A stretch of 64,000 nucleotides of DNA from Alphaproteobacteria bacterium (lineage in GTDB: Bacteria > Pseudomonadota > Alphaproteobacteria > Rhizobiales > Rhizobiaceae): contig JAHJHT010000002.1 in assembly GCA_018823835.1 (NCBI GenBank), positions 744,001-808,000 of the forward strand. The letters are read 5' to 3'. The notes beneath the pieces were generated by a model, which was given only the letters and a program-made list of their open reading frames with translations, ran no database searches and had not been told where the DNA came from. The position numbers were made by a program, and so were the translations under genes. Shown here piece after piece: positions 17,312 through 34,101 of this stretch (the stretch's first letter is position 1; each line of letters starts with the position of its first letter).

Positions 17312-18352
17312 CTAGCCGCCAATGACGCTGCGATAACCGCGCGGTGAGGTTCCGGCCCATCGGCTGAAGGCGCGGGTGAAGGCCGACAGTTCGGAATAGC
17401 CGAGCAGCAGGGCGATTTCGCTGAGCGGCAGATGGCGCTGCGCCAGATAATGCCGCGCCATGTCGAAGCGTATCGCGTCGATCGCCTGGCGAAATCCCAA
17501 GCCCTCGTCTGCAAGTGCCCGGCGGATGGCGCTTGGGGCGAGATGCAGATCATCGGCGACCTTCTCCAGCGTTGGCGCCCCGTCGGGCAGACGCCGGCGC
17601 ACTGCGCCGTGCACACGGTCGACCAGCGACTCGGCCCGTTCCGGAGAACCGAGCAGTTCGAGACAGGTCTGCATCATCGTCAGCAGCTTGAGGTCGCGCC
17701 CCGGCATCGGCCTGTCCAGGAGCGCGGGATCGAATACGATCGAATTGCTGTCGCAGCCGAAGAAAACCGGAGCGCCGAACGCAGTCTCATGCTGGCGCCA
17801 CTCGACGGGCTGCGGATGTTCGAACTGGATTTCGATGGGCGCCCAGGTCCGGCCGCAGCATTCCCTGATCAGGTTGACGAACTGTCCGAGCGACAGCTCG
17901 GCATCCTGTCGTCTCGCAACGATTGCAGGCGTGTGAATCTGGTAATCGAGCCTGACGCGCCGCGCATCCTCGCGCACGATGCACATGGTCGAGGAACTCT
18001 GCTGGTAGCGGAACAGGCCGACGAGGTTTTCCAGCGCCGAGCCTAGCGTCGGCGACGACAGAGCCGCATAGCCCCACATGCCAAGGTCGCGCGGCTGGAA
18101 CTGTTGTCCGAACCACAGGCCGAAGTTGTCGCAGCCTGTGTCGCGCGCGGCCTCCTCGAACAGCGCGCAGAAAGTGGCGAGCGGCAGTTGCAGGGTCGGC
18201 GCGACTGTCATTTCGGGTGCGACCCCGCAACGGCCGAAAACCGCGTCAACGTCGCCGCCCTGAGCCCTGACAAACTCGGTGAGCCCGGCTGCCGCGGCCA
18301 TCAGGACCACGGGCGTATCGATTTGCGACGTTAGCTGGCCAGCTTGGCCCAT
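17312..18352 (-). CDS. AraC-family transcriptional regulator (first of two paralogues)
   Basis: A 346-residue regulator with an Arabinose_bd-type N-terminal domain (about 1-210, including FGLWFGQQFQPRDLGMWGYA) and a C-terminal AraC DNA-binding domain with two helix-turn-helix motifs (LPLSEIALLLGYSELSAFTRAFSRW). It is divergent from the fused diol dehydratase gene, with a CTGTCAAG direct repeat in the spacer. The paralogue at 26456 shares the same architecture and nearly identical recognition segments. It is probably the activator of the dehydratase and microcompartment regulon, with an amino alcohol or diol as inducer (inference). Confidence 0.88.
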   Translation of the reverse strand: MGQAGQLTSQIDTPVVLMAAAAGLTEFVRAQGGDVDAVFGRCGVAPEMTVAPTLQLPLATFCALFEEAARDTGCDNFGLWFGQQFQPRDLGMWGYAALSSPTLGSALENLVGLFRYQQSSSTMCIVREDARRVRLDYQIHTPAIVARRQDAELSLGQFVNLIRECCGRTWAPIEIQFEHPQPVEWRQHETAFGAPVFFGCDSNSIVFDPALLDRPMPGRDLKLLTMMQTCLELLGSPERAESLVDRVHGAVRRRLPDGAPTLEKVADDLHLAPSAIRRALADEGLGFRQAIDAIRFDMARHYLAQRHLPLSEIALLLGYSELSAFTRAFSRWAGTSPRGYRSVIGG

Positions 18353-18457
18353 TCAGTTCGACCCCTTCTTATCGTTCCGGAAAATGCCTCTGCGGAATGA
18401 CAAGCGACAAAATCATGGCACGTGCCCCATTATGCTGCAAGGCAACATGCCACGATC

Positions 18458-18511
18458 TGTCAAGCTTGGCCCGCTTTCGGTCAAGCCGGACGGAATGCGG
18501 CTCTGTAGGGT
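18458..18511 (+). promoter_or_regulatory. AraC-type promoter: 21-base phased direct repeat plus -10-like box (diol dehydratase)
   Basis: TGTCAAG at 18458-18464 (preceded by C) and GGTCAAG at 18479-18485 are exactly 21 bases apart, two helical turns. A -10-like TAGGGT lies at 18506-18511, 20 bases after the second repeat, so the proximal repeat would touch the -35 position. This is the layout of class II AraC activation. The start codon of the dehydratase is at 18606. The same arrangement occurs at 21364 and 27661. Confidence 0.65.
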
Positions 18512-18605
18512 GTGTCTGTCGGTTTGCAACGATCCGCCCCTGTGGTGGCACAAGACATCGATTGCCCGAACACCGACGGTCAGACAGCCTGACGGAGGAA
18601 TGGCA

Positions 18606-20900
18606 ATGACCGATCAGCCCGAGATTGACGCCGTTAGCGGTGCAAATCGCTGGCGCCGTTTCGCCGATTGGGATGAGCGGCCGCTCAGGCTCGACAGGTT
18701 CGCCGTCGAGGATCCCGAGAACGGCTTTGCCGCCTTCAAGGGCGCGCGCGATCCCGCTCCCGGCCTGCAGATCGAGAAGGGACGTATCGTCTCGATGGAT
18801 GGTACGGCGCTGGCCGACTTCGACATGATCGATGCCTTCGTGGCCGAGCATCACCTCGATCTCGAGATGGCCGAGACCGCCATGGCGATCCCTTCCGAGC
18901 GGCTTGCCCGAATGCTTGTCGACGTCGCGGTGCCGCGCACCGAGCTGACGCGCCTTGCACACGGTTTGACGCCGGCCAAGCTCGCCGAGGTCGTGGCGCA
19001 GCTCTCTTCCATCGAACTGGCCTTTGCCTTTTCCAAGATGCGTACCCGCAAGACGCCCGGAAACCAGGGGCACGTCACCAACGCCAAGGACGACCCGCTG
19101 CAACTGGCAGCGGATGCAGCGATCGCGGTGGCCTTCGGCTTCGACGAGGTCGAGACCACGATGCGCGTGGCGCGCAACGCCTGGTCCAACGCGCTAGCCT
19201 GCGCGGTGGGCGTGTCGGTCGGGCGCTGGGGCACGCTGTTCCAGTGCGCCAGCGAAGAGGCCGAAGAGCTGCAGATCGGCATGGCGGGCTTTACCTCCTA
19301 TGCCGAGACCGTCTCCGTCTACGGCACCGAGCGCGCCTTCACCGACGGCGACGACACGCCCTGGTCCAAGGCCTTCCTGGCAGCCGCCTATGCATCGCGC
19401 GGTATCAAGATGCGCTGCACCTCGGGTGCCGCTTCGGAATTGCTGATGGGATTCCACGAATCCAAGTCGTTGCTCTATCTCGAGGCCCGCTGCCTCTGCC
19501 TGCAAAGGGCCATGGGCGTGCAGGGAACGCAGAATGGCGGCATCGACGGTGCACCGCTGGCGGCGTCCATGCCGGGCGGCGTGCGGGAGTTGATGGCCGA
19601 GAACCTGATCGCCGCCTGGCTCGACCTCGAATGCGCGACCGGCAACGACGCGCGCCACTCGGAATCCGAGATCCGGGTCGGTGCGAAAATCCTGCCCTTT
19701 CTGATCGCCGGGTCGGATCTCGTCTGTTCCGGCATGGGCTCGATCCTCAAATACGACAACTCCTTCAACCCCTCCTCGTTCAACGGCGAGGAGATGGAGG
19801 ACTTTCTGGTGCTGCAGCGCGATTTCGAAGCCGATGGCGGCTTGACGTCGGTCGAGGAAGCGACCGCGCTCGACGTGCGGCGCCGCGCCATCGAGGCCCT
19901 TGCGGCGGTTCTCGACGAACTCGGCCTCGGCACGCCGACGGCTGCGATGAAGCGCAGTGTCGCGGTGGCCTCCGGCTCGAACGACACCGACAGCTATCTG
20001 CCCCGCGATGTCGCGCTGATCAGCGACAGGATCAAGGCGCAGGGCATCAACGTGCTGGACGTCATCAAGGCCCTGGCGGCGAGAGGGTTTCGCGAGGAGG
20101 CACAGAACCTGCTGAACGTCGTGCGTCTCCGCGTTTCCGGCGATTATCTCCAGACGGCGGCCGTCGTGCGCGACGGCCATGTGGTCAGTGCGGTCAACGA
20201 TCCGAACGATTATGTCGGCCCCGGCACCGGCTATCGCCTCTCGGATGCGCGGCGCCGGGAACTCGCCGCCATCCGCGACGTCCTGACGCGCGAGGAAGTG
20301 CTGCGCACCGAGGCTGCCTTCGCGCCGGCCGAGGCCGCGCGGATCTCCTACAAGACGCTGGGCCCCGCGGCCTCGAAAGGACCAGCCAGCGAGATCGTCA
20401 TCGGCATCAGTCCGGCCTTCGGCATCAAGCTCTTCCAGACGCTTGCAGGGCATCCTCTTTCGGCGGTGCTGCGGGCGCTTTCGGAAGGCATCAGGGCCAA
20501 AGGCGGCACGGTCAGGGTGGTGCGCATGCGCCATACCGCCGACACCTCGTTTCTGGGTCTGTCCGCGGCGAGGCTTGCAGGATCGGGCGTCGGAATCGGA
20601 CTGCAGGCCAAGGGCACCGCCGTCATTCATCAGGCGGACCGGCTGCCGCACCATAACCTGGAACTGTTTTCCAATGCGCCGATCACCTCGCTGGCTCACT
20701 ACCGATCGTTTGGCGAGAACGCTGCTGTCTATGCCGCAGGCGAGATGCCGGAGCCGGTGGTGGTGCCTACCGGAGGCATGGCGCTTGGCGCCCGCTACCA
20801 TGCCCAGGTCGCGCTGATCTATGCCATCGAGACGGCGCTGGCCGAGGATGGTGCGCAGCCCGAGGATCTAGAGGTTGCAGACCTGGAGGCCACGTCATGA
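18606..20900 (+). CDS. B12-dependent diol/glycerol dehydratase, large and medium subunits fused (PduC-PduD fusion)
   Basis: The start is ATG 18606, 7 bases after GGAGG. The 764-residue chain joins a complete large subunit (about 1-580) to a medium subunit (about 595-755), normally separate PduC (about 554) and PduD (about 224) proteins. With an offset of 13 from Klebsiella PduC numbering, catalytic and metal residues are kept: Gln154, His156, Glu183, Glu234, Gln309, Asp348 and Ser375. Two substrate-pocket positions differ: Ser301 is Asp314 and Gln336 is Ala349. The enzyme would convert a 1,2-diol to an aldehyde through adenosylcobalamin radicals. The small-subunit gene overlaps by 4 bases. 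No encapsulation-type N-terminal helix is apparent, and no reactivase gene is in the window. Confidence 0.9.
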   Translation: MTDQPEIDAVSGANRWRRFADWDERPLRLDRFAVEDPENGFAAFKGARDPAPGLQIEKGRIVSMDGTALADFDMIDAFVAEHHLDLEMAETAMAIPSERLARMLVDVAVPRTELTRLAHGLTPAKLAEVVAQLSSIELAFAFSKMRTRKTPGNQGHVTNAKDDPLQLAADAAIAVAFGFDEVETTMRVARNAWSNALACAVGVSVGRWGTLFQCASEEAEELQIGMAGFTSYAETVSVYGTERAFTDGDDTPWSKAFLAAAYASRGIKMRCTSGAASELLMGFHESKSLLYLEARCLCLQRAMGVQGTQNGGIDGAPLAASMPGGVRELMAENLIAAWLDLECATGNDARHSESEIRVGAKILPFLIAGSDLVCSGMGSILKYDNSFNPSSFNGEEMEDFLVLQRDFEADGGLTSVEEATALDVRRRAIEALAAVLDELGLGTPTAAMKRSVAVASGSNDTDSYLPRDVALISDRIKAQGINVLDVIKALAARGFREEAQNLLNVVRLRVSGDYLQTAAVVRDGHVVSAVNDPNDYVGPGTGYRLSDARRRELAAIRDVLTREEVLRTEAAFAPAEAARISYKTLGPAASKGPASEIVIGISPAFGIKLFQTLAGHPLSAVLRALSEGIRAKGGTVRVVRMRHTADTSFLGLSAARLAGSGVGIGLQAKGTAVIHQADRLPHHNLELFSNAPITSLAHYRSFGENAAVYAAGEMPEPVVVPTGGMALGARYHAQVALIYAIETALAEDGAQPEDLEVADLEATS

Positions 20901-21331
20901 GAGACCCGGGACGCCGCCTTGGCATTGCCGACTATCCACTCGCGGAAAAGTGTCCCGCCGATGTCACGACGGCGAGCGGCAAGACCCTCGACGACCTGAC
21001 GCTGGCAGCGGTCGAGGCCGGCGAGGTGACGCTCGAGGATCTTCGCATCACACCCAAGGCCCTGTCCGATCAGGCACAGGTGGCAGTCGCGGCAGGCCGG
21101 CCCACACTGGCCCGCAACTTCGAGCGCGCGGCCGAACTTGTCGACGTGCCCCAGGACTTCCTGCTCGAGGTCTACGAACTTCTGCGTCCCGGCCGGGCCA
21201 AGTCAAAAGCGCAATTGCTGGAAGCCGCCGCCACGCTGCGTGCAGGCCATGGCGCCGAGCGGATGGCGGCCTTCGTCGAGGAGGCTGCCGAAGTCTACGA
21301 GCGGCGCGGTCTTTTCGGGTACCGATTCTGA
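20897..21331 (+). CDS. Diol dehydratase small subunit (PduE-like)
   Basis: A 144-residue protein. The core DYPLAEKCPADV, KTLDDLTLAAV, LRITPKALSDQA and LARNFERAAELVDVP segments are diagnostic of the dehydratase small subunit. Salmonella and Klebsiella PduE are about 173 residues; the missing part is the N-terminal extension that acts as a targeting or low-solubility region in those enzymes. ATG 20897 overlaps the stop of the fused large-medium gene (ATGA), so all subunits are made in a coupled way. With the fused chain it should form the alpha-beta-gamma holoenzyme. Confidence 0.92.
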   Translation: MRDPGRRLGIADYPLAEKCPADVTTASGKTLDDLTLAAVEAGEVTLEDLRITPKALSDQAQVAVAAGRPTLARNFERAAELVDVPQDFLLEVYELLRPGRAKSKAQLLEAAATLRAGHGAERMAAFVEEAAEVYERRGLFGYRF

Positions 21332-21363: not shown

Positions 21364-21417
21364 TGTCAAGTTTGAGGGTCTTACTGTCAAGACCGGCTGG
21401 CGAGCCTTGCCTAACGT
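21364..21417 (+). promoter_or_regulatory. AraC-type promoter: 21-base phased direct repeat plus -10-like box (importer/SDR operon)
   Basis: TGTCAAG at 21364-21370 (preceded by C) and TGTCAAG at 21385-21391 are exactly 21 bases apart, and a -10-like TAACGT sits at 21412-21417, 20 bases after the second repeat. The following gene starts at 21592, leaving an untranslated leader of about 170 bases. Two isolated half-sites follow at 21424 (CGTCAAG) and 21525 (GGTCAAG). Nothing resembling a B12-box is visible in the leader. Confidence 0.6.
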
Positions 21418-21591: not shown

Positions 21592-22755
21592 ATGAGCAAA
21601 TTCAACCAGACACGACGCGACTTTCTACAGAATTCAGCACTGATGGCGGGTGGACTTGCGGCCGGCAGTATGGCCGGGGTGCTCCCGGCGGCCGCAGACC
21701 GGTCCAAGGAACTCAACATCCTGTGCTGGGAGGGCTACAACTCGGCGCAGGTGCTCGACCCGTTCCGGACGTCGACCGGCGCAACGGTGCGGGCCGAGTC
21801 CCTCACCAACGATCCGACCATGATCAACCGGCTGCGTGCCGGCGAGACCAACATCTGGGACCTGATCAACGTCAACAACCCCTGGGCCCGCAAGGTGATG
21901 AATCCGGAAGGCCTGATCAAGCCGATCGACAAGGCCCGGTTCGAGCCCTATTTCGACAAGATGCTGCCGGCCTTCAAGGCGCCTTACAAGTGGGCGATGG
22001 ACGATGCCGGCGATCAGCTGCTGGGCATGGCCCAGCGCTTCGGACCATACAGCTTCGTCGTCAACACCGACAAGATCAGCCGCGCTACCGCAGAGGACCA
22101 GGGCTGGGATCTGTGGAACGATGCCGCGAATGACAAGAAGTATGGCGTCCAGGCGTCCGACGACTGGAACGTCTTCGATCTCTGCTGCATCGCCGGCTTC
22201 GATCCCTTCCGCGAGCATACGGACGAAGAGGTGGCCAAGTACACCGACGCCGCGAAGCGGGTCTTCAAGGGTGCAAGAATGGTCGGCGACCTGGCCACGA
22301 TGAACCAGGCGCTGGTTTCAGGCGAGATCGACTTCTACCTGACGGGCGGTACCTACTCGTGCTCCCCGGCGCGCGCAGACGGCAACCTCAACATCCGGGC
22401 GATCACCCCGCTGCGCGGTCCTTTCGAAGGCGGCAAGGGCGGCATCTCGTGGATCGAGATCACCTCGGTCGTCAACAATCCGGACGTTTCGCCGCTGGCA
22501 GAGGACTTCCTCGAATACGTCCAGTCTCCCGAAATGTCCCACACCGTGGCCTTCGCCGAGGGCACGTTCAATCCCGTCACGCAGATGGGCAACTCCGCGT
22601 GCTTCGACCTGTTCTCCAAGGAAGAACTCGACGTCATCCAGTGGGACAGCCTCGAGGAAGAAATGGCGCGTTCGGCCGAGTATGATATCGTGCCGGACTA
22701 CGACAAGCTGCTGGACATCATGACCGCAGTAAAGCGCGAAACATCGGGCGGCTGA
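21592..22755 (+). CDS. Periplasmic binding protein, PotD-like, Tat-type signal (second cluster)
   Basis: The start is ATG 21592, with GGAG 8 bases before it; a longer open frame upstream lacks support. The product has 387 residues. The N-terminus carries a twin-arginine motif, TRRDFLQNSALMAGGLAAG, and the mature protein starts ELNILCWEGYN, the spermidine/putrescine-binding family signature. It probably binds the small amine or amino alcohol that feeds the microcompartment pathway (inference from regulon membership). A strong hairpin follows the gene, a common way to keep binding-protein mRNA more abundant than the downstream transporter mRNA. Confidence 0.88.
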   Translation: MSKFNQTRRDFLQNSALMAGGLAAGSMAGVLPAAADRSKELNILCWEGYNSAQVLDPFRTSTGATVRAESLTNDPTMINRLRAGETNIWDLINVNNPWARKVMNPEGLIKPIDKARFEPYFDKMLPAFKAPYKWAMDDAGDQLLGMAQRFGPYSFVVNTDKISRATAEDQGWDLWNDAANDKKYGVQASDDWNVFDLCCIAGFDPFREHTDEEVAKYTDAAKRVFKGARMVGDLATMNQALVSGEIDFYLTGGTYSCSPARADGNLNIRAITPLRGPFEGGKGGISWIEITSVVNNPDVSPLAEDFLEYVQSPEMSHTVAFAEGTFNPVTQMGNSACFDLFSKEELDVIQWDSLEEEMARSAEYDIVPDYDKLLDIMTAVKRETSGG

Positions 22756-22853: not shown

Positions 22854-23918
22854 ATGACTGGCGTACCAATTTTGCAGCTGCGCAGCCTGACCAAGACGTT
22901 TGGCTCCCTGGCTGCGGTGGACAAGATAGACCTGGATTTCGACGAGGGTGAATTCTTCACCATCGTCGGGCCTTCTGGTAGTGGAAAGACCACTCTCCTG
23001 CGCATGTTGACCGGCATGGAAACGCCAACGAGTGGCGAGATCCTGCTGCGCGGCAAGCGCATCAACGACCTGCCCGCCAACAAGCGGCCGACCTGCATGG
23101 TCTTCCAGTCGCTGGCGCTGTTCCCGCATCGGTCGGTCGGACAGAACATCGAGTTTTCCCTGAAGATGAAGGGCGTCGATCCGGCGACGCGCAAGGCCCG
23201 CGCGCTTGAGCTCATGTCGCAATTGCGGCTACCCGAATCCTACTATTCAAAGAACGTCACCAAGTGCTCCGGCGGCGAACGGCAGCGCGTGGCACTGGCC
23301 CGCGCCCTCGCTTACGAGCCTGACATCCTATTCTTCGACGAGCCGCTGTCGGCCATCGACTACAAGCTCCGGAAGACGCTGGAGAAGGAACTCAAGGACA
23401 TTCACCGGGAGACCGGGAAAACCTTCATCTACATCACCCACAGCCTTGAAGAGGCTATGGTGATGAGTGACCGTATCGGCGTCATGCGGGGCGGCAAGCT
23501 GATCCAGGTGGGATCGCCACAGGAAATCTACTCCGCGCCGCACACCAAGTTCGTTTCCGAATTCATCGGCGACGTGAATATCATCGGCGTCACGGCCGAC
23601 GGCACTGCGCAGGTGAAGGCAAAGGAATTCGGCGCCAGCCTCAAGACGCCCGCCGTGCCGGAGGGCTTCGGTGCCGGCTACCTGGTGGTCCGGCCGGAAT
23701 CGCTGCGCTTCCTGTCCAAGGCCGACGAGGCGCAGAATTGCCTCGAGGGGCGTCTGTACAATGAATACGTTCTGGGCTCTCGCGTGCAGTACCAGGTGCG
23801 GGTCGGCGACCACGTCTTCATCGTCGAGAAGCTGCGCCAGCAGGCCTTTGGCGGACACCGGGACGACAAGGTTCTGATCGGCTGGGACGCCGACGACAGC
23901 ATCCTTGTGACGGACTGA
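22854..23918 (+). CDS. ABC transporter ATP-binding protein, PotA-like (second cluster)
   Basis: A 354-residue ATPase with Walker A GPSGSGKTTLLR near residue 39, signature CSGGERQRVALARAL, Walker B ILFFDEPLSAID and the switch His in YITHSLEEA. A C-terminal TOBE-like domain follows. The signature begins Cys-Ser rather than Leu-Ser, a tolerated variation. It energises the PotB/PotC-like pair directly downstream. The ribosome-binding site before ATG 22854 is weak, in line with lower expression than the binding protein. Confidence 0.9.
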   Translation: MTGVPILQLRSLTKTFGSLAAVDKIDLDFDEGEFFTIVGPSGSGKTTLLRMLTGMETPTSGEILLRGKRINDLPANKRPTCMVFQSLALFPHRSVGQNIEFSLKMKGVDPATRKARALELMSQLRLPESYYSKNVTKCSGGERQRVALARALAYEPDILFFDEPLSAIDYKLRKTLEKELKDIHRETGKTFIYITHSLEEAMVMSDRIGVMRGGKLIQVGSPQEIYSAPHTKFVSEFIGDVNIIGVTADGTAQVKAKEFGASLKTPAVPEGFGAGYLVVRPESLRFLSKADEAQNCLEGRLYNEYVLGSRVQYQVRVGDHVFIVEKLRQQAFGGHRDDKVLIGWDADDSILVTD

Positions 23919-23930: not shown

Positions 23931-24788
23931 ATGGACAGGCTCGCAAAGATTTTCCGGCCCGGCCCGCGGCACGCAATTCCGGTGATGCTGTTCCTGTTGC
24001 TGGGTTTCGTCGCCCCGCTCGTCACGGTCGTCATGTACAGCTTCGTTCCGTCGCGCACCTTCGACCTGTGGCAGGACTGGAACCTCGACAACTACGCCGA
24101 GATCTTCAACTCATCGAGCTACATACCGTTCGTCTGGTCGCTCGGGCTTGCGGCCGCGACAGTGCTGATACTGGCCGTGATCTGCTATCCGGTAGCCTTC
24201 GGGATAACCAGGGTGTTCGGCAAGTACGCGACCTTCATCACGCTGCTTTTCACCTTGCCGCTGTTCGTCTCCGAGAATGTTCGCATCTACGGGTGGATCC
24301 TCTTTTTCATCAAGAACGGCGTGCTGCTCGGCTCGCTGAAATCGATGTTCGGCTACGAGCCCGAAAGCATCCTGTTCACGACAGGCCTGACCCTGATGGG
24401 CATGGTCTATGTCTACCTGCCTTTCATGCTGTTTCCGATGACGCTCGGCGTCTCGATGGTGCCGCAGCAGACCCGCGACGCCGCGTTCGATCTCGGCGCC
24501 ACGCGCTGGCAGGTGTTCAAGGAGGTCGACCTGCCGCTGGCGATGCCGGGCATCGTCATCGGCTTTCTGCTGACCTTCGTGCTGGCGGTCGGCGCGATCG
24601 CCGAAGCCAAGGTGCTCGGCGGCCAGCGCATCATTCCGATCACCCAGGACATCGAAACAGCCTTCACCTACGCCCAGAACTGGCCGCTGGGAGCGGCCCT
24701 CTCCGTGCTGTTGATGCTGGTCGTGGGCACTCTCGTTCTCGTCGTCCTGAGGCGCTTCGATCTCGACACCATCCTGGGGAAGAAGTGA
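23931..24788 (+). CDS. ABC transporter permease, PotB-like (second cluster)
   Basis: A 285-residue inner-membrane protein from ATG 23931, chosen because GCGGA lies 7 bases upstream (GTG 23928 is the alternative). Six hydrophobic segments are apparent, and the EAA loop is FDLGATRWQVFKEVDLPLAM. It pairs with the PotC-like gene that starts 2 bases after its stop. It belongs to the importer linked by a shared promoter element to the microcompartment operon. Confidence 0.88.
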   Translation: MDRLAKIFRPGPRHAIPVMLFLLLGFVAPLVTVVMYSFVPSRTFDLWQDWNLDNYAEIFNSSSYIPFVWSLGLAAATVLILAVICYPVAFGITRVFGKYATFITLLFTLPLFVSENVRIYGWILFFIKNGVLLGSLKSMFGYEPESILFTTGLTLMGMVYVYLPFMLFPMTLGVSMVPQQTRDAAFDLGATRWQVFKEVDLPLAMPGIVIGFLLTFVLAVGAIAEAKVLGGQRIIPITQDIETAFTYAQNWPLGAALSVLLMLVVGTLVLVVLRRFDLDTILGKK

Positions 24789-27660: not shown

Positions 27661-27715
27661 TGTCAAGATCGCCGCATCACGGGTCAAGCGGTGGGGGTGA
27701 TGCCGGGGCTAGGGT
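27661..27715 (+). promoter_or_regulatory. AraC-type promoter: 21-base phased direct repeat plus -10-like box (microcompartment operon)
   Basis: TGTCAAG at 27661-27667 (preceded by C) and GGTCAAG at 27682-27688 are 21 bases apart; a -10-like TAGGGT lies at 27710-27715, 21 bases after the second repeat. The operon's first start codon is at 27805. This is the third copy of the element found upstream of the dehydratase (18458) and importer (21364) operons. Confidence 0.65.
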
Positions 27716-27804: not shown

Positions 27805-28803
27805 ATGGGCATGGAGCTAGCCGAGGATACATCGTTGCGTGCAATCGATGGGCTGGCCATGGCTGCATTGCCGCGCTGGGGTCTCGAGGGCGCCAGCGCT
27901 ACGCTGATCAACCATTCCGAAAACTGGACCTATCGCGTGACGCCGGCCGGTGGCGGACGGCCGGTCATCCTGCGCATCCATCGTAGCGACTATCACACCA
28001 CCGACGGCATCCGCAGCGAACTGGACTGGATGCGCGCGCTGCAGGCGGAGGCGGCCGTCAAGACACCGCAGGCAATCCCGGGATTGGACGGCGCCGACAT
28101 ACAGTTTGTCGAGACGAAGCAGATCCCGTCCGGGCACAATTGCGTGCTGTTCGAGTTCATCGACGGTGCCGAGCCGGCGCAGGACGAGTTGATGGCGCCA
28201 TTCCGGCAACTGGGCGAGGTCACTGCGCGCTGCCATACGCACAGCCAGACCTGGGAGCGGCCACCCTATTTCGAGCGGCTGTGCTGGGATTTCGAGCATT
28301 CTTTCGGCGCCACTGCCAACTGGGGCCAATGGAAAGACGGGCCAGATTGCACGCCAGAGCGTCAGCGGCTGCTGCAGCGCGCGGTTGACCTGATGGAACG
28401 CCGGCTCGCCCGCTTCGGCAAGGGAAGCGACCGCTACGGCCTGATCCACGCCGACTTCCGCCTCGCCAATCTACTCGTGCATGAGGGCGATGTCCGGGTC
28501 ATCGATTTCGACGATTGCGGCCTTGGCTGGTTCCTCTACGACGCCGCGACGGCGGTCAGCTTTTTCGAGGACCGGGCCGACGTGCCGGACCTGATGGAGG
28601 CCTGGAAGGAGGGCTATCGCCGCCAGCGTGTCCTTCCCAAGGAGGACGAAGACGAGCTGTGGACCTTCATCCTGATGCGCCGCATGACGCTGTTCGCCTG
28701 GATGGGCTCGCACAGCGAAACCGATCTCGCGCGCACGGAAGGCCCCGGCTACAGCACCGGGACCTGCGAATTGGCCGAGCGCTATCTGAGCCAATACGGC
28801 TAG
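27805..28803 (+). CDS. APH-fold small-molecule kinase (predicted amino-alcohol kinase)
   Basis: A 332-residue aminoglycoside-phosphotransferase-fold protein. The catalytic loop HADFRLANLL puts the base at Asp217 and the metal-binding Asn at 222. The following VIDFDDCGLGWFLYD gives the second metal Asp at 234 (DFD). In aminopropanol (RMM-type) microcompartment loci, a kinase of this family phosphorylates 1-amino-2-propanol so that the next enzyme can eliminate phosphate and ammonia. Homoserine or choline kinase activity is an alternative for the fold. It is first in the shell operon, 22 bases before the aminotransferase-fold gene. Antibiotic-resistance activity is unlikely given the context. 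Confidence 0.85.
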   Translation: MGMELAEDTSLRAIDGLAMAALPRWGLEGASATLINHSENWTYRVTPAGGGRPVILRIHRSDYHTTDGIRSELDWMRALQAEAAVKTPQAIPGLDGADIQFVETKQIPSGHNCVLFEFIDGAEPAQDELMAPFRQLGEVTARCHTHSQTWERPPYFERLCWDFEHSFGATANWGQWKDGPDCTPERQRLLQRAVDLMERRLARFGKGSDRYGLIHADFRLANLLVHEGDVRVIDFDDCGLGWFLYDAATAVSFFEDRADVPDLMEAWKEGYRRQRVLPKEDEDELWTFILMRRMTLFAWMGSHSETDLARTEGPGYSTGTCELAERYLSQYG

Positions 28804-28825: not shown

Positions 28826-30118
28826 ATGTCGGACGTAAAGCCGCAGAGCCCGGAAAAGCGCGAATTCATCGCCAAGTCGAAGACGTTCTGGAACCCCGGC
28901 AAGACCCAGGCGTGGCAGGACATGGGCGTCGATCTGGTGATCGACCGGCGCGAGGGTTACTTCATCTGGGACATGGATGGTCGGCGGCTGATCGACCTGC
29001 ATCTCAACGGCGGCACCTACAATATCGGGCATCGCCATCCCGAACTGATCGAGATCCTCAATCGGGGCACGCAGCGCTTCGACATGGGCAACCATCACTT
29101 TCCGTCGCAGGCGCGCACTGCCTTGGCGGAAAGGCTTGCCGAAATCTGCGGCGGCGACCTGCACTACACGATGTATGCATCGGGCGGCGCCGAAGCGATC
29201 GACATCGCCCTGAAGACGGCAAGGCACGCGACCCAGCGGCGCAAGATCGTCTCCATCGTCAACGCCTATCACGGTCATACCGGCCTGGCGGTCGCCGCCG
29301 GTGCCGACCGCTTCAAGAAGATCTTCCTGTCCGATCAGCCGGAGGATTTCGTCCATGTGCCGTTCAACGACCTGACCGCCATGGAAGACGCCCTGAAGGG
29401 CAACGACGTCGCGGCGCTGATCATGGAGACGATCCCCGCCACCTATGGCTTTCCGATGCCGCTTCCGGGCTATCTCAAGGACGTCAAGAAGCTCTGCGAG
29501 CACTACGGCGCACTCTACGTCGCCGACGAGGTGCAGACCGGCCTGATGCGCTGCGGCGAGATGTGGGGCTACCAGCGCTATGGCATCGTCCCGGACATGG
29601 TCGTCACCGGCAAGGGCATTTCGGGCGGCATGTATCCGATCGCCTGCGTGGTGGTGCGCGAGCCCTATGCCGGCTGGCTGACCCAGGACGGCTTTGCGCA
29701 CATGTCGACCATGGGCGGCGCGGAACTCGGTTGCCTCGTCGCCATGAAGACCCTTGAAATCCTGCAGCGCCCGCCGGTGAAGCCGATGGTGAACTACATC
29801 TCGGAGACGTTCCGCAACGGGCTGCACGAGATCATGAAGCTCTATCCCGACTTCTTTGTCGGCATCCGCCAGTGCGGCGTCGTCATGGGGCTCGAGTTCG
29901 ATTTTCCCGAGGGCGCCAAGCCGGTGATGCGGCATCTGTACGAGAACGGTGTCTGGGCAATCTTTTCCACGCTCGATCCACGCGTGCTGCAATTCAAGCC
30001 CGGCGTGCTGATGACGGCCGATCTCTGTCAAGAGGTGCTTGAGCGTGTCGAGCGCAGCGTCGGCCTTGCCTATGCCGAGTGCATGGGGCGCGGACGCGGC
30101 AAAGCCCGCGCGGCCTGA
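28826..30118 (+). CDS. Class III aminotransferase-fold PLP enzyme (predicted aminopropanol-phosphate phospho-lyase)
   Basis: A 430-residue fold-type I PLP enzyme. ASGGAEAIDIALKTAR (about 118-133) is the phosphate-binding turn, Asp234 in YVADEVQTG pairs with the pyridine nitrogen, and Lys263 in VVTGKGISGG forms the Schiff base. Class III members include true aminotransferases and also phospho-lyases acting on ethanolamine phosphate. Directly after an APH-fold kinase and before an acylating aldehyde dehydrogenase, the phospho-lyase role fits best: aminopropanol phosphate to propionaldehyde, phosphate and ammonia. An ordinary aminotransferase activity cannot be excluded. Confidence 0.87.
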   Translation: MSDVKPQSPEKREFIAKSKTFWNPGKTQAWQDMGVDLVIDRREGYFIWDMDGRRLIDLHLNGGTYNIGHRHPELIEILNRGTQRFDMGNHHFPSQARTALAERLAEICGGDLHYTMYASGGAEAIDIALKTARHATQRRKIVSIVNAYHGHTGLAVAAGADRFKKIFLSDQPEDFVHVPFNDLTAMEDALKGNDVAALIMETIPATYGFPMPLPGYLKDVKKLCEHYGALYVADEVQTGLMRCGEMWGYQRYGIVPDMVVTGKGISGGMYPIACVVVREPYAGWLTQDGFAHMSTMGGAELGCLVAMKTLEILQRPPVKPMVNYISETFRNGLHEIMKLYPDFFVGIRQCGVVMGLEFDFPEGAKPVMRHLYENGVWAIFSTLDPRVLQFKPGVLMTADLCQEVLERVERSVGLAYAECMGRGRGKARAA

Positions 30119-30132: not shown

Positions 30133-31734
30133 ATGACCGCGATAGTCGAAGAAATCCTGGCCGGTGAAAAGCGCCCAACCGGCGCAGCCGACCTGATGCT
30201 GCAGGTGGCCGAATGGGCGGCCTCCGCCTATGCACGATTTGGCCGGGCAAAGGTGGAAGAGATCGCCCGCGCCGCGGCCGAGACAGCGCACGCCCACGCA
30301 GGCGAACTGGCCGAGGCTGCGGTCGCCGAGACCGGTTTCGGCGTTGCCGAGCACAAGAAGATCAAGAACGAACTCACGTCGCGCGCGCTGTTCGAGCTCT
30401 ATTCCCGCGAGGACTTCTGTTCCGCCCGGATCAGACCCGACCTGAAGATGGTGGAACTGCCGCGGCCGGCCGGCGTCGTCTTTGGCCTGACGCCTTCCAC
30501 CAATCCCGTCTGCAGCGTCTTCTACAAGATCCTGATGGCGCTGGTGACGCGCAACGCCATCATCATCTCGCCGCATCCGATGGCCAAGGCCTGCTCGGCG
30601 CGGGCCGCGAAGCTGATGGCCGAGGCAGCCGAGAAGGCCGGCGCCCCTGCCGGCATCATCCAGGTCATCGAGCACCCGAACCTGCCGCTGATCGAGCATG
30701 TGATGAAGTCGCCACGGGTCGGCGTGATCCTGGCGACCGGCGGCACGCCGATGGTGCGTGCTGCCTACAGCTCCGGCAATCCGGCCATCGGCGTCGGCCC
30801 GGGCAATGCGCCGGTTCTGGTGGACGAAAGTGCCGACCTCAACGAAGCCGCCAAGCGCATCGTCGCCTCGAAGAGCTTCGACAACTCGATCCTCTGCACC
30901 AATGAGAGCGTGGTGCTGGCCGTGGAGAGCGTCGCCGACCGGCTGGTGCAGTCGATGCGCTCGGCCGGCGCGCATGTCGCCAAGCCGGAGGAAGTCGCGG
31001 CGCTGCGCGAACTGCTGTTCGGGCGTGGAACCTTCAATGTCGAGGTGCTGGGCAAATCGGCCGTCGAGATCGGCGCCATGATCGGCCTGCGCCTGCCGCC
31101 GCACACCAAGATCATTCTCGCCGAAATCGACCGCGTCGGCATCGACGAGCCGCTATCGAAGGAAAAGCTCTGCCCCGTGCTCGGGTTCCTGCGCGTGCCG
31201 CATGCCCAGGCCGGCATCAACCAGGCCAAGGCCCTGATCCGGCTTTCGGGTGCCGGCCATTCCGCCGCAATACACAGCCACCATTCAGCGACGATCCTCG
31301 CCTATGGCGCCGCCGTGAAGGCGCTGCGGGTCGTCGTCAACGCTCCCTGCAGCATGGGAGCGGCCGGATACGGCACCCACCTGGCTCCCGCCTTCACGAT
31401 CGGCACGGGCTATTTCGGCTCGTCGTCGGTCGGCGAGAATGTCGGCCCCCAGCACCTCATCAACTGGACCCGGATCGCCTACAATGACGACCCGTCGGAA
31501 GCCTTCGGCGACTTTGCCGGCCTCGACGCATGGTCCGGCGGCCCAGCCCTTGCGCTCGGCCTCGAAGCGCCGATCTCGCTCGGGCGCTTGCAGGAAGGTG
31601 CGCCGAAACTCGGCGATCCCGCACCCTCGAACGCAGCGGGCGGCGCCGATGAGCTTGCGCTGATGCGCGAGGAAATCCGCAAGATGGTGCTTGAAGAACT
31701 GCGTGGGGCCTTGGCTGCCGGGAAGAAGACCTGA
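30133..31734 (+). CDS. CoA-acylating aldehyde dehydrogenase with C-terminal encapsulation-type helix (PduP/EutE family)
   Basis: The start is ATG 30133 with AAGGA 10 bases upstream, giving 533 residues. The catalytic Cys255 lies in NSILCTNESV and the cofactor segment ATGGTPMVRAAYSSG is near 201. It would oxidise propionaldehyde or acetaldehyde to the acyl-CoA. Beyond the catalytic domain, a Gly/Pro/Ala-rich linker (about 485-505) leads to a final amphipathic helix (about 508-530, DELALMREEIRKMVLEELRG). This is the layout of encapsulation peptides that dock enzymes to BMC shells, here at the C-terminus rather than the N-terminus used by Salmonella PduP. Four bases later the shell genes start. 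Confidence 0.92.
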   Translation: MTAIVEEILAGEKRPTGAADLMLQVAEWAASAYARFGRAKVEEIARAAAETAHAHAGELAEAAVAETGFGVAEHKKIKNELTSRALFELYSREDFCSARIRPDLKMVELPRPAGVVFGLTPSTNPVCSVFYKILMALVTRNAIIISPHPMAKACSARAAKLMAEAAEKAGAPAGIIQVIEHPNLPLIEHVMKSPRVGVILATGGTPMVRAAYSSGNPAIGVGPGNAPVLVDESADLNEAAKRIVASKSFDNSILCTNESVVLAVESVADRLVQSMRSAGAHVAKPEEVAALRELLFGRGTFNVEVLGKSAVEIGAMIGLRLPPHTKIILAEIDRVGIDEPLSKEKLCPVLGFLRVPHAQAGINQAKALIRLSGAGHSAAIHSHHSATILAYGAAVKALRVVVNAPCSMGAAGYGTHLAPAFTIGTGYFGSSSVGENVGPQHLINWTRIAYNDDPSEAFGDFAGLDAWSGGPALALGLEAPISLGRLQEGAPKLGDPAPSNAAGGADELALMREEIRKMVLEELRGALAAGKKT

Positions 31735-31737: not shown

Positions 31738-32349
31738 ATGGCCGAGCTTCGCTCATTCATATTCATCGACCAGTTGCAGCCGCAGACGCTCTGCTACATG
31801 GCAAGCGGCATGCGTGGCCGCCTGCCACGCACCAACATGGCGGCACAGATCATCGAGGTCGCACCGGGCCTGGACATCGAGGCGCTGACCGACGTGGCGC
31901 TGAAACATGCCGATGTCAGCGGCGGCATGCTCGTGGTCGAGCGGCAGTTCGGCTACCTCGAGTTCCATTCGCGCTCGACCTCGTCGGTGAAGTCTGCGGC
32001 GGAAGCTGTGCTCGAGGTGCTGGATGCCCGCACCGACCAGGCGATCCCGCCGAAGATTCTGGCGTCGAAGATCGTCACGCGCATCGACAATGGTCACGCC
32101 TTCCTGATCAACCGCAACAAGTCGGGCTCGATGATCCTGCCGGGCGAGTCGCTCTTCGTGCTCGAGATGCAGCCGGCGTCCTACGCCATCCTCGCCACCA
32201 ACGAGGCGGAGAAGAACGCCGACATCAAGGTCATCGATTACCGCATGTTCGGCGCCACCGGCCGCGTCTATCTTTCCGGCGAGGAGTCGGATGTGCGCAT
32301 GGGCGCCGAGGCCGCGCTGGCGGCACTGAAGGACGGTGCACATGCTTGA
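31738..32349 (+). CDS. BMC-T (tandem-domain) microcompartment shell protein, first copy
   Basis: A 203-residue protein built of two BMC domains. The first spans about 1-100 and carries AAQIIEVAPGLDIEALTDVALKH. The second spans about 105-200, with SMILPGESLFVLEMQPASYAILATNEAEKNA and the repeated strand GRVYLSGEE. Such tandem proteins form pseudohexameric trimers in the shell facets, often with larger, gated pores for bulky cofactors or substrates. It is 3 bases after the aldehyde dehydrogenase and overlaps the next gene by 8 bases. A second BMC-T of the same type is at 33466. Confidence 0.9.
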   Translation: MAELRSFIFIDQLQPQTLCYMASGMRGRLPRTNMAAQIIEVAPGLDIEALTDVALKHADVSGGMLVVERQFGYLEFHSRSTSSVKSAAEAVLEVLDARTDQAIPPKILASKIVTRIDNGHAFLINRNKSGSMILPGESLFVLEMQPASYAILATNEAEKNADIKVIDYRMFGATGRVYLSGEESDVRMGAEAALAALKDGAHA

Positions 32350-32764
32350 CAAGAACGCAATCCGGACCCTGATCCGCGACGTCATCGCGGAGGAGGTTCG
32401 ACATCTGAAGGGCGGTCAAGCAGCCCCCGCTGCGCCTTCCGCCGTGATGATCGCCAGCGACGCGGACCTGGCCGCCTTCGCAAGGCAGGTCCTCGCCCTG
32501 GCGGAAGATCCGGGCGTGCGCGCCGCCATCATGGGCGGTCGCCATCCCTTCTCGCTGGCGCGGCAAGGCTCCGCGGCGCCGACCGCCTCGGTCGCGGCCG
32601 CTTTCGACCATCGCATCGACAAGGGCGTCGTAACCGAAACCGCCATAGCCAAGCTGCCGAAGGGCGTCTCGCGCCTGCTGCTCGGCGCCGGCGTCAGCAT
32701 CACCCCCTTGGCCCGAGACAAGGCCAGGTCGCGCAACATCAGCATCGAAAGGGTCGAACAATGA
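32342..32764 (+). CDS. Microcompartment-associated protein of unknown function with N-terminal encapsulation-like helix
   Basis: A 140-residue product from ATG 32342, with AAGGA 8 bases upstream. The first 23 residues (LDKNAIRTLIRDVIAEEV) form an amphipathic helix like the encapsulation peptides of BMC cargo. An Ala/Pro-rich linker (about 26-36) follows, then a compact domain. Near the C-terminus GAGVSITPLARDKARSRNISIE resembles the ITP-x-A-x-D-x-A-R motif found at domain borders in several BMC proteins such as EutQ and PduL. Overlaps with BMC-T (8 bases) and BMC-P (4 bases) show tight coupling to the shell. I do not recognise the function. It may be a scaffold linking enzymes to the shell or a small enzyme. 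Confidence 0.82.
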   Translation: MLDKNAIRTLIRDVIAEEVRHLKGGQAAPAAPSAVMIASDADLAAFARQVLALAEDPGVRAAIMGGRHPFSLARQGSAAPTASVAAAFDHRIDKGVVTETAIAKLPKGVSRLLLGAGVSITPLARDKARSRNISIERVEQ

Positions 32765-33018
32765 TTCGAGGTCGCGTGGTGGGCCGATACTGGGCCACAA
32801 AACGTATCGAACACATTCCTTCCGGGGCCTTTCTGGAAGTCGAGAGCGCCGGCGGCGGACGCATCATCGCGCTCGACGTACTCGGCTGCGGCGACGGCGA
32901 GGACGTGCTCGTTGTTACCGGGTCCACGGCTGCCACATGGCTCGGCGGCGGCAAGATTCCAATCGACGCGCTGATTATCGGGTCGCTCGACGAGACACCA
33001 AAACAGAAATCCAAATAG
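32761..33018 (+). CDS. BMC-P pentameric shell vertex protein (EutN/CcmL family)
   Basis: An 85-residue protein with the EutN/CcmL beta-barrel pattern: N-terminal GRVVGRYWATKRIEHIPSGAFLEVE, a central ALDVLGCGDGEDVLVVTGSTA, and the vertex motif DALIIGSLDE. Pentamers of this family cap the 12 vertices of a closed microcompartment. One copy in the operon is enough in principle to close the shell. The start overlaps the stop of the unknown protein gene (ATGA). Confidence 0.93.
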   Translation: MIRGRVVGRYWATKRIEHIPSGAFLEVESAGGGRIIALDVLGCGDGEDVLVVTGSTAATWLGGGKIPIDALIIGSLDETPKQKSK

Positions 33019-33042
33019 CCAATCTGCAAACAGGAGAGAACC

Positions 33043-33324
33043 ATGTCGAATGCAATAGGAATGATCGAAACCAAGGGCTTCGTTGCCGCGCTCGCCGCCG
33101 CTGACGCGATGGTCAAGGCGGCCAACGTGGTTGTCGTGGGCCGCGAGCAGGTCGGTGACGGGCTCGTCGCCGTCATCGTCAATGGCGATGTCGGCGCCGT
33201 GAAGGCCGCGACCGAGGCAGGCGCGGAAGCTGCGTCCAGCGTCGGCACGCTGGTCTCGGTGCATGTCATTCCGCGTCCGCATCCGGACCTTGGCAAGCAT
33301 TTCTCCACCACGACCGGCAAGTGA
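33043..33324 (+). CDS. BMC-H hexameric shell protein (PduA/CcmK-like) with an Asp in the pore loop
   Basis: A 93-residue canonical BMC-domain protein ([24 protein letters not shown], then [14 protein letters not shown] and VHVIPRPH). Hexamers form the main shell facets. The pore loop reads QVGDGL where Salmonella PduA has KIGSGL, so Ser40 of PduA is replaced by Asp39. A ring of six acidic side chains at the narrowest point would favour cations over anions. A clear ribosome-binding site (AGGAGAG) precedes ATG 33043 and a perfect 10-base hairpin follows, both in line with high expression of the major facet protein. Confidence 0.95.
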
Positions 33325-33332
33325 CGCCTCGC

Positions 33333-33356
33333 CAGGCGACACGCTCGTGTCGCCTG
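33333..33356 (+). terminator. Hairpin after the BMC-H gene
   Basis: A perfect 10-base stem, CAGGCGACAC at 33333-33342 and its complement at 33347-33356, with loop GCTC, begins 9 bases after the BMC-H stop. There is no T-run. It is likely to stabilise the 3' end of the BMC-H message or to reduce read-through to the last shell gene. Confidence 0.6.
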
Positions 33357-33465
33357 CCTTGGACGGTGCGGGCAGCTGCGCGGCCGAGGCCGGGGCGTGG
33401 CCCCCGGCGTCTTGTGACCTTCCTCCGTGCCGGAGGGGGATGGAGCGCGTGCGACGGATGAGAAC

Positions 33466-34101
33466 ATGACAGAACTACGGGTCTATCTGCTGGTGAAGGA
33501 TCTCGGCCGACAGTTCGCGGCCTACATGTCGACGCCGACCCGTGCACGCGGCTACCCGCCGATGCAGGGCGAACACTCGCTCATCATCGAGATTGCGCCC
33601 GCACTTGCCATTCACCGCATCTGCGACCTTGCGCTGAAGAAGATGCCGGACATGGAGCCGGGGCTGCTCTACACCGAGCGGCAATATGGCATCCTGGAAC
33701 TCCATTCCGCCGATCTCGGGCAACTCGACGAGGCCGGCAAGGCGATCCTCGACGGCATCGGCCACAAGGCAGACGACCAGCTGAGGCCGCGCACCCTCTA
33801 TGCCGACATCATCGAGGACGTCTCGGACCAGCACGCCATCATCCTCAACCGCACGCGCGAAGCCTCGATGCTGCTGCCGGGCAAGTCGCTGCTGGTCTAC
33901 GAGCTGGAGCCGGCGCTGTTTGCGACCGTCGCGGCCAACGAGGCCGAGCGGGTGGCGCCCGGCATCACGCTCGTCGATGTCCAGATGATCGGCGCGAGCG
34001 GACGGCTCTTCCTGGCCGGGACGCGGGCCGAGTGCGAGCGGGCACGCGACCGCATCGACGAGGTGCTGGGAAGCATCGTCGGCCGACCGGGCCGCTCCTG
34101 A
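33466..34101 (+). CDS. BMC-T (tandem-domain) microcompartment shell protein, second copy
   Basis: A 211-residue protein with two BMC domains, paralogous to the one at 31738. Shared landmarks are MTELRVYLLVKDL at the start, LIIEIAPALAIHRICDLALK, ASMLLPGKSLLVYELEPALFATVAANEAERVA and GRLFLAGTRAE. It adds a slightly longer first domain. The start is ATG 33466; upstream ATGs near 33440 and 33458 are out of frame. It ends the shell operon. Two different BMC-T proteins with a single BMC-H and BMC-P give a four-protein shell, the same count as I recall for the mycobacterial aminopropanol compartment. Confidence 0.9.
   Translation: MTELRVYLLVKDLGRQFAAYMSTPTRARGYPPMQGEHSLIIEIAPALAIHRICDLALKKMPDMEPGLLYTERQYGILELHSADLGQLDEAGKAILDGIGHKADDQLRPRTLYADIIEDVSDQHAIILNRTREASMLLPGKSLLVYELEPALFATVAANEAERVAPGITLVDVQMIGASGRLFLAGTRAECERARDRIDEVLGSIVGRPGRS

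What the first reader, a model, noticed from the sequence alone, without database searches (positions are those of the whole stretch)
17312..34101. RMM-like aminopropanol microcompartment locus combined with a B12 diol dehydratase
Seen: APH-fold kinase, class III PLP enzyme, acylating aldehyde dehydrogenase, SDR and four shell proteins (two BMC-T, one BMC-P, one BMC-H). A fused adenosylcobalamin diol dehydratase plus small subunit lies in the same locus. Known: kinase plus phospho-lyase is the aminopropanol route of RMM-type compartments, while B12 diol dehydratase belongs to PDU-type compartments. From memory the two routes are not usually found together. Inference: a two-entry compartment in which amino alcohols (via phosphate) and 1,2-diols (via B12) converge on one aldehyde and one aldehyde dehydrogenase. 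PduL, PduQ, PduS, PduO, EutT and shell genes beyond these four are absent from the window.
Basis: partly seen in the sequence, partly recalled or inferred. Interest (0 to 1): 0.93.

Follow-up and report, generated by a model that had tools for sequence, protein, structure and literature searches.

The report
Aminopropanol compartment with outside B12 enzyme
A bacterial locus carries the genes of a protein-shelled compartment of the already described RMM type, predicted to break down aminopropanol, next to a vitamin-B12-type dehydratase that has a changed active site and lacks the shell-targeting tags of PDU relatives, so it likely works outside the shell on another substrate under the same predicted genetic switch; that such loci pair the two is already in print.

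Summary
The genes are there as described. The shell proteins and the kinase match the Mycobacterium smegmatis RMM set. (1) The fused dehydratase belongs to one clade with Asp where canonical enzymes have Ser301 and without Gln336, both substrate-pocket residues. (2) It lacks the N-terminal extensions that five canonical shell-linked PDU clusters carry. (3) No reactivase match in 31 distinct genomes with the alphaproteobacterial branch. (4) Three perfect 21-bp-spaced direct repeats precede the dehydratase, importer-SDR and kinase-shell units. (5) Dehydratase and kinase also occur together in three genomes without shell genes. Best reading: an RMM2-like aminopropanol compartment plus a co-regulated, probably cytosolic dehydratase with a different substrate. 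Substrate, location and regulation are untested. One Asp301 locus has a sugar-type importer, so an amine substrate is not secured.

The parts
17312..18352 (-). reg1: AraC-type regulator, divergent from the dehydratase genes
   Evidence: Pfam Arabinose_bd + HTH_18; NCBIfam QhpR 328.7 bits; 60% identical to reg2
18458..18486 (+). predicted operator 1: TGTCAAG-N15-GTCAAG direct repeat, 21-bp spacing, before the dehydratase
   Evidence: also upstream of PduCD in G092 and with at most 1 mismatch in 7 of 7 near relatives
18606..20900 (+). fused AdoCbl diol/glycerol-dehydratase large + medium subunit, Asp301 type
   Evidence: Pfam PF02286 + PF02288; active-site alignment; start checked
20897..21331 (+). 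dehydratase small subunit, without a long N-terminal extension
   Evidence: Pfam PF02287; N-terminus compared
21364..21391 (+). predicted operator 2, before the importer genes
21592..22755 (+). PotD-like solute-binding protein with twin-arginine signal
   Evidence: start
22854..23918 (+). PotA-like ABC ATPase
23931..24788 (+). ABC permease (first)
   Evidence: reading frame and synteny with the importer genes of relatives; no family scan of its own
24791..25609 (+). ABC permease (second, PotC-like; start approximate)
25634..26416 (+). SDR of the aminopropanol dehydrogenase type
   Evidence: 6ci8/6ci9 third and fourth among solved relatives (E 3.7e-84, 1.1e-83)
26456..27523 (-). reg2: AraC-type regulator, divergent from the kinase-shell genes
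27661..27689 (+). predicted operator 3, before the kinase-shell genes
27805..28803 (+). APH-fold amino-alcohol kinase
   Evidence: best solved relative 6ef6, E 4.7e-84
28826..30118 (+). class III PLP enzyme, predicted phospho-lyase
   Evidence: fold family only; the lyase role is inferred from context
30133..31734 (+). acylating aldehyde dehydrogenase with a C-terminal targeting-type helix
   Evidence: helix; start
31738..32349 (+). BMC-T, double-layer (MSM0275-like)
32342..32764 (+). protein X: N-terminal targeting-type helix, TIGR02536-like C-terminus (weak)
32761..33018 (+). BMC-P (MSM0273-like)
33043..33324 (+). BMC-H (MSM0272-like)
33466..34101 (+). BMC-T, double-layer (MSM0271-like)

Best explanation
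The locus encodes an RMM2-like microcompartment, predicted to turn 1-amino-2-propanol (from aminoacetone, via the SDR) through its phosphate into propionaldehyde and then propionyl-CoA, beside a fused diol-dehydratase-family enzyme that has Asp in place of Ser301 and lacks the N-terminal extensions of shell-linked PDU dehydratases, and which therefore likely works outside the shell on a diol other than 1,2-propanediol under the same predicted AraC-type control. Shown from sequence: gene identities, shell relationships, conserved synteny, the Asp301/no-Gln336 pocket, the missing extensions, no reactivase match in the genomes searched that hold the alphaproteobacterial branch, and the shared repeats. 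Inferred: import of an amine or amino alcohol; SDR interconverts aminoacetone and 1-amino-2-propanol; kinase makes the O-phosphate; the PLP enzyme eliminates phosphate and ammonia to give propionaldehyde; the aldehyde dehydrogenase, held in the shell by its C-terminal helix, makes propionyl-CoA. Inferred with less certainty: the dehydratase takes a C3-substituted 1,2-diol (3-amino-1,2-propanediol or glycerol are the candidates) in the cytosol, and its aldehyde may or may not enter the shell.
For: RMM identity: BMC-T1, BMC-T2, BMC-P best match MSM0275, MSM0271, MSM0273, and BMC-H matches MSM0272 second only to an engineered fusion; kinase best matches 6ef6. Pocket, K. oxytoca numbering: Asp301 in 51 of 51 readable RMM-genome or order-sample fused rows, duplicates included; 42 of 42 distinct Asp301 sequences form one clade, support 1.0, against 11 Ser301 sequences; Q141, H143, E170, E221, Q296, D335, S362 kept in the window enzyme. 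A review states that the C3-OH of glycerol points to Ser301 in one binding mode, and lists Km for 1,2-propanediol of 0.06 mM in the wild type and 2.4 mM in S301A/Q336A (PMC7674605, passages). Targeting: 5 of 5 canonical clusters with BMC genes (G028, G107, G138, G286, G988) have 40-64 extra residues before the PduE core; 25 of 26 alpha-type Asp301 rows have 6-15, and the PduD start is fused in 26 of 26; helix on the ALDH C-terminus and on X. Reactivase: 0 of 15 and 0 of 16 further distinct genomes with the alpha-type enzyme. Regulation: 3 exact TGTCAAG-N15-GTCAAG sites, none in 100 shuffles; at most 1 mismatch: 8 hits at spacing 21, 0-2 at each other spacing 10-40. Pathway link: kinase in 15 of 15 genomes with the fused dehydratase against 43 of 184 others (Fisher p 2e-9, not corrected for kinship); 3 of those 15 have no BMC gene.
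Against: G950 has an Asp301 dehydratase with a sugar-type ABC importer, and G455 and G608 have Asp301 dehydratases with no RMM gene in the 20-kb stretches fetched, so Asp301 does not by itself mean an amine substrate. In the review's table S301A/Q336A still turns over glycerol with a Km of 0.84 mM, so plain glycerol stays possible. The hydrophobic-moment score does not separate the termini (window PduCD 0.54, X 0.50, ALDH 0.48): the case rests on extension length and sequence pattern, and lack of an extension does not exclude encapsulation by partner binding. The operator precedes PduCD only in the near relatives: 0 of 7 distant loci and 0 of 12 further rows with full upstream sequence at spacing 21 (one row has a two-mismatch site at spacing 20). 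In 22 of 27 RMM genomes with the dehydratase the two lie within 14 kb (by hand), which also fits a shared compartment. The other Asp301 branch keeps a divergent reactivase in 13 of 14 genomes. The PLP enzyme's best solved relatives are aminotransferases; ethanolamine-phosphate phospho-lyase comes far lower.
Confidence: 0.5

Rival explanations
1. Two-entry compartment, as the first reader inferred and as Axen 2014 offers as an alternative: the dehydratase is inside the shell, makes propionaldehyde from 1,2-propanediol, and shares the aldehyde dehydrogenase with the aminopropanol route.
For: Linkage of dehydratase and shell genes in 22 of 27 genomes; catalytic and metal ligands kept; shared predicted operators; the alternative is named in print (PMC4207490, passages).
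Against: No N-terminal extensions of the kind seen in 5 of 5 shell-linked canonical clusters; Ser301 and Gln336 replaced throughout, changes that as alanines raised Km for 1,2-propanediol 40-fold; enzyme clade also in 3 genomes without any BMC gene.
Confidence: 0.27
2. Mere neighbours: the dehydratase serves an unrelated polyol pathway, and the compartment does not use it (the reading Axen 2014 prefers for RMM2).
For: Separate transcription units; 22 of 49 RMM genomes had no dehydratase match (MAGs among them are incomplete), nor had G189 and G181; sugar-type importer beside the enzyme in G950.
Against: Kinase in 15 of 15 dehydratase genomes of the order sample; operators shared in the window and its near relatives; SDR, importer or an amidohydrolase gene stand with it in several loci, also without a shell.
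Confidence: 0.18
3. The changed pocket is an adaptation to avoid suicide inactivation rather than to a new substrate: a glycerol or propanediol dehydratase that needs no reactivase.
For: S301A and Q336A singly lower the glycerol inactivation rate (1.15 to 0.22 and 0.081 per min; PMC7674605 table); reactivase not found in the alpha-type branch.
Against: In the same table both changes raise inactivation with 1,2-propanediol, and the double mutant has a lower kcat/kinact with glycerol (0.006) than the wild type (0.009). The other Asp301 branch mostly keeps a reactivase (13 of 14), so Asp301 and loss of the reactivase are separable.
Confidence: 0.13

Closest known systems
RMM2 microcompartment loci of Rhodococcus and Mycobacterium (Axen 2014; RMM also called AAUM, or Aut)
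   Same: Shell proteins, kinase and SDR close to the M. smegmatis set, class III PLP enzyme, acylating aldehyde dehydrogenase, and diol-dehydratase genes on a separate transcription unit.
   Different: AraC-type regulator pair and PotFGHI-like ABC importer instead of the GntR regulator and amino-acid permease reported for RMM; SDR in the importer unit, while in the actinobacterial loci fetched it follows the kinase; no reactivase, while 13 of 14 genomes of the other Asp301 branch have one.
PDU compartments (1,2-propanediol utilisation)
   Same: Dehydratase superfamily, acylating aldehyde dehydrogenase, BMC-H and BMC-P.
   Different: Fused large and medium subunits, Asp301 and no Gln336, no long N-terminal extensions on the dehydratase, no reactivase found, none of the other PDU genes among the window ORFs scanned (4, 5, 75, 76).
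Fused dhaB1-dhaB2 glycerol dehydratases of Mesorhizobium, Mycobacterium and Hyphomicrobium (PMC4777399, citing Liu 2010)
   Same: Fused subunits, no reactivation factor found by those authors, and an active site that Liu and co-workers called slightly different (passages; Liu 2010 not seen).
   Different: Those authors treat it as a glycerol (dha) enzyme; the word microcompartment does not occur in the main text. Here 13 of 14 genomes of the other Asp301 branch have a divergent reactivase.

Membership tests
RMM-type shell and enzyme core | Two BMC-T(dp), one BMC-H, one BMC-P of the RMM clades | tested here: met
   best match MSM0275, MSM0271, MSM0273; MSM0272 second after an engineered fusion (sequence matches, no tree made)
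RMM-type shell and enzyme core | Phosphotransferase, class III aminotransferase-fold enzyme, AldDH and SDR in the locus | tested here: met
   the SDR lies in the neighbouring importer unit
RMM2 (Axen 2014) | Diol dehydratase genes present (the difference from RMM1) | tested here: met
   definition
RMM2 (Axen 2014) | Amino-acid permease and GntR-family regulator, listed by Axen for RMM1 and said to be shared by RMM2 | tested here: not met
   ABC importer and AraC-type regulators instead. Hence filed as RMM2-like, not as RMM2
RMM / aminoacetone utilisation | Enzyme activities on aminoacetone and 1-amino-2-propanol | not testable with these tools
   Inferred from sequence relatives only
PDU compartment | Dehydratase subunits with N-terminal targeting extensions | tested here: not met
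   5 of 5 shell-linked canonical clusters have them, the window enzyme does not
PDU compartment | Dehydratase reactivase | tested here: not met
   PF08841 no match in the window's assembly (88% complete) or in 30 further distinct genomes with the alpha-type enzyme
Canonical diol/glycerol dehydratase | Ser301 and Gln336 in the substrate pocket | tested here: not met
   Asp301, Ala336
Diol dehydratase superfamily | Metal and catalytic residues Q141, H143, E170, E221, Q296, D335, S362 | tested here: met

The most novel reading that the evidence does not exclude
RMM2-type compartments come with a third kind of AdoCbl dehydratase: an Asp301 enzyme that works outside the shell, without a reactivase in Alphaproteobacteria, on an amino-diol such as 3-amino-1,2-propanediol, so that one AraC regulon opens two chemically different routes, one in the shell and one in the cytosol, for a family of C3 amino alcohols.
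Probability: 0.22. Interest if true: 0.72.

Novelty: new variant of a known kind. Interest (0 to 1): 0.45.

Why it matters
Axen 2014 left open whether RMM2 compartments use their diol dehydratase. The sequence now makes a definite, cheap test possible: substrate profile of an Asp301 dehydratase, its presence or absence in purified shells, and joint induction of three units under one predicted operator. If the enzyme is cytosolic with a new substrate, the presence of a B12 dehydratase in a locus no longer shows that a compartment is a diol metabolosome. If it resists inactivation without a reactivase, it would also be of use to those who make 3-hydroxypropanal or 1,3-propanediol.

Tried and rejected
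Local alignment of the two intergenic regions of the window showed no similarity above shuffles (score 10 against a shuffle mean of 9.7). The shared 21-bp-spaced repeat was seen by eye in that output and then tested, so the motif was chosen after looking. Genome-wide, GTCAAG-N15-GTCAAG has 11 exact matches against 9 for the reversed control, so it means nothing outside its context; 3 of the 11 fall within 9.2 kb here, and of the 8 matches fetched only these 3 begin with T. No site lies near the dehydratase, importer or kinase in G004, G077 and G087.

A salt bridge Asp301-Arg337 was considered, but position 337 is Leu or Gln in the other Asp301 branch. An 'Asp301 means an amine substrate' rule was considered and not kept, because of G950, G455 and G608. 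'Asp301 clade has no reactivase' was considered after and narrowed to the alpha-type branch. 'Small residue at 336' is not strict: it is Asn in L210. The hydrophobic-moment test of targeting helices did not discriminate, so extension lengths were compared instead. There, G484 PduD could not be resolved from its open frame, two rows of the other branch had no start within 70 codons, L186 PduE scored 31 and the PduCD starts chosen for L052, L190 and L233 look too long. Rfam at gathering thresholds found nothing in the window, so no cobalamin riboswitch was identified. The model of protein X is poor (pLDDT 71.6, pTM 0.35) and has no PDB match at E 0.001. A second shared motif, AATSATKGCAYG, has 2 matches against 0.14 expected, but 1 of 100 shuffles reached 2; not followed.

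Rows dropped: G107c and G138c were read on the wrong strand and were redone. In one search, 22 rows were left out as duplicates or fragments, including both rows of G201, so that genome is not in the tree. Position 301 could not be read in the fragments G038a, G038b, L201 and L202.
Full report
WHAT IS THERE. Three units lie in a row: (i) fused dehydratase large+medium subunit and small subunit, with reg1 divergent; (ii) a PotFGHI-like importer and an SDR; (iii) kinase, class III PLP enzyme, acylating aldehyde dehydrogenase, BMC-T, X, BMC-P, BMC-H, BMC-T, with reg2 divergent. The two AraC-type regulators are 60% identical. The BMC domain was found nowhere else in the window's assembly, and a PduO-type adenosyltransferase lies elsewhere on the contig.

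RMM IDENTITY. Among solved structures, the best matches are MSM0275 for the first BMC-T, MSM0271 for the second, MSM0273 for BMC-P, and MSM0272 for BMC-H after an engineered tandem fusion. The kinase best matches 6ef6 at E 4.7e-84; the SDR has 6ci8 and 6ci9 in third and fourth place. That these three entries are the M. smegmatis aminopropanol kinase and dehydrogenase of Mallette and Kimber is recalled; the PDB names printed are generic, and the kinase paper was not held (titles seen in a reference list). A scan of GTDB contigs with an alignment of the first BMC-T gave 311 relatives, of which the best 80 were kept. These lie in Alpha- and Gammaproteobacteria, Actinomycetota and a few other MAGs, and where the contig is long enough ALDH, BMC-T, X, BMC-P, BMC-H and BMC-T come in this order.

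IN PRINT ALREADY. [quoted passage not shown] Sutter 2021 (PMC8217296, passages) mentions RMM2 outliers. A 2019 paper (PMC6620236, passages) predicts an aminopropanol pathway for the cluster. PMC4777399 (passages) reports fused dhaB1-dhaB2, a slightly different active site (citing Liu 2010, not seen) and no reactivation factor in Mesorhizobium, Mycobacterium and Hyphomicrobium; so fusion, a changed site and the missing reactivase are not new in themselves. Searches for RMM2 + microcompartment, aminoacetone or phospho-lyase + microcompartment, and dehydratase + fusion + reactivase (listings with titles and abstract starts) showed nothing else on location, pocket or regulation of the RMM2 dehydratase; most subscription papers are not covered.

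HOW OFTEN TOGETHER. In an even sample of 199 genomes of the order, 18 have a dehydratase match at E 1e-50, 15 of them of the fused type, and 58 have the kinase at E 1e-30. All 15 fused-type genomes have the kinase (two as partial matches at contig ends); of the other 184, 43 have it (Fisher p 2e-9, ignoring kinship). In 10 of the 15 the kinase is within 14 kb, in four it is on another contig, in G004 550 kb away. 12 of the 15 have a BMC gene; G004, G077 and G087 have none. Conversely G189 and G181 have importer, SDR, kinase, PLP enzyme, ALDH and shell and no dehydratase match. Of 49 RMM-shell genomes searched, 27 hold the fused dehydratase, and 22 of these have it within 14 kb of the shell gene (worked out by hand); in the other five it is on another contig. 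So the pairing is common but neither part needs the other.

A CHANGED POCKET. In K. oxytoca numbering the metal and catalytic positions are kept, but Ser301 is Asp in 51 of 51 readable fused rows, duplicates included, and Gln336 is Ala, Ser, Thr or Cys, once Asn. Canonical rows (Klebsiella, G028, G107, G138) have Ser and Gln. A phylum-wide sample by Pfam family (10 of 396 genomes with a match; 6 of 398) adds further Asp301 and Ser301 enzymes and one fused enzyme with Ser301 and Ala336 (L208). In the tree, 42 of 42 distinct Asp301 sequences form one clade with support 1.0 and L208 is its sister. A review (PMC7674605, passages) says that the C3-OH of glycerol faces Ser301 in one binding mode, and its table gives Km for 1,2-propanediol of 0.06 mM in the wild type and 2.4 mM in S301A/Q336A, but 1.2 and 0.84 mM for glycerol. 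Asp at this place suggests a polar or cationic C3 substituent. Against an amine-only reading, G950 pairs an Asp301 enzyme with a sugar-type importer and an SDR, and G455 and G608 have no RMM gene in the stretch fetched.

NO TARGETING EXTENSION ON THE DEHYDRATASE. The aldehyde dehydrogenase ends in an amphipathic helix (REEIRKMVLEEL) that recurs in the 9 relatives printed of 86, and X begins with one. The hydrophobic moment alone does not single these out (window PduCD start 0.54, X 0.50, ALDH end 0.48). The lengths do: in canonical clusters with BMC genes (G028, G107, G138, G286, G988) PduE has 40-64 residues before its core in 5 of 5, and PduD 59-61 in the 4 that could be read. In canonical or Ser301 clusters with no BMC hit in the stretch (G377, G484, G422) PduE has 7-11. 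The alpha-type Asp301 enzymes have 6-15 in 25 of 26 rows, the other branch 4 or fewer in the 13 of 15 rows that could be read, and the PduD start is fused in all 41. By this measure the RMM dehydratase looks like the dehydratases that stand without a shell. Encapsulation through partners is not excluded.

REACTIVASE. PF08841 has no match in 15 of 15 fused-type genomes and none in the 19 alpha-type rows, which are 16 further distinct genomes; it is present in 3 of 3 canonical genomes and 5 of 7 Ser301 genomes. The other Asp301 branch has a divergent match in 13 of 14, in 12 of these within about 3 kb of the dehydratase.

SHARED CONTROL. TGTCAAG-N15-GTCAAG occurs three times exactly in the window, at 18458, 21364 and 27661, each in a gap before one of the three units; 100 shuffles gave none. 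With at most one mismatch, spacing 21 gives 8 hits in the window and every other spacing from 10 to 40 gives 0-2; the five inexact ones of the 8 lie within open frames and are probably coding. G092 has the same three. Seven near relatives (L173-L179) have the repeat upstream of PduCD with at most one mismatch and diverged spacers; seven distant ones do not, nor do 12 rows at that spacing. So joint control of dehydratase and shell is predicted for the window's own branch, not for RMM2 as a whole. In several other shell loci (G006, G013, G015, G061, G126) the repeats precede importer and kinase or shell genes.

AN AMIDOHYDROLASE THAT THE WINDOW LACKS. In 7 related dehydratase loci an isochorismatase-fold hydrolase gene lies between PduE and the importer (G004, G006, G013, G015, G061, G079, G126), and it also follows the shell genes in G189 and several GTDB loci. 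Weak relatives are biuret and ureidoacrylate hydrolases. It suggests that an amide is one entry point; in the window only the gap with operator 2 remains.

MECHANISM AND VERDICT. The aminopropanol route is the best-supported function of the shell unit, by family relationships; the lyase step is the weakest, since the PLP enzyme's best solved relatives are aminotransferases. For the dehydratase I commit to a co-regulated cytosolic enzyme with a substrate other than 1,2-propanediol (0.5 for the whole statement). No activity, location or expression was measured.

Noticed in passing
window 32342-32764: Protein X, found in the RMM loci seen, has an N-terminal targeting-type helix and a weakly TIGR02536-like C-terminus; no fold match. 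A possible cargo or core linker of unknown function.
   Followed up: partly
L060:14467-15294 and relatives: Isochorismatase-fold amidohydrolase conserved in related loci but missing from the window's locus.
   Followed up: partly
window 15528-17293: LuxR-type regulator with autoinducer-binding domain directly followed by a proline-iminopeptidase-like hydrolase; recalled: this pairing is known for plant-responsive LuxR solos.
   Followed up: no
window 9424-15419: Oligopeptide-type ABC genes (binding protein, fused ATPase, permease) and an alpha/beta hydrolase gene, next to the LuxR gene.
   Followed up: no
window 40704-46994: Oligopeptide-type ABC genes that include an acetamidase/formamidase-family gene (44248-45192).
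   Followed up: no
window 35163-38621: Two HWE-family histidine kinases side by side, shortly after the shell genes.
   Followed up: no
L125, L127: Contigs labelled Bifidobacterium breve MAG carry RMM loci; the label looks like a mis-assignment or contamination.
   Followed up: no
G203:C54:232537-234777 (L200): A second Asp301 dehydratase in a genome that already has one beside its RMM genes.
   Followed up: no
L070:12362-13687 and G001, G004: In loci without shells the kinase stands near another class III PLP enzyme, about 26% identical to the window's; the G004 and G001 copies are 62% and 55% identical to that of G077.
   Followed up: partly
G422, G425: Ser301 dehydratases without a reactivase match in the genome; G422 is fused and sister to the Asp301 clade.
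   Followed up: no
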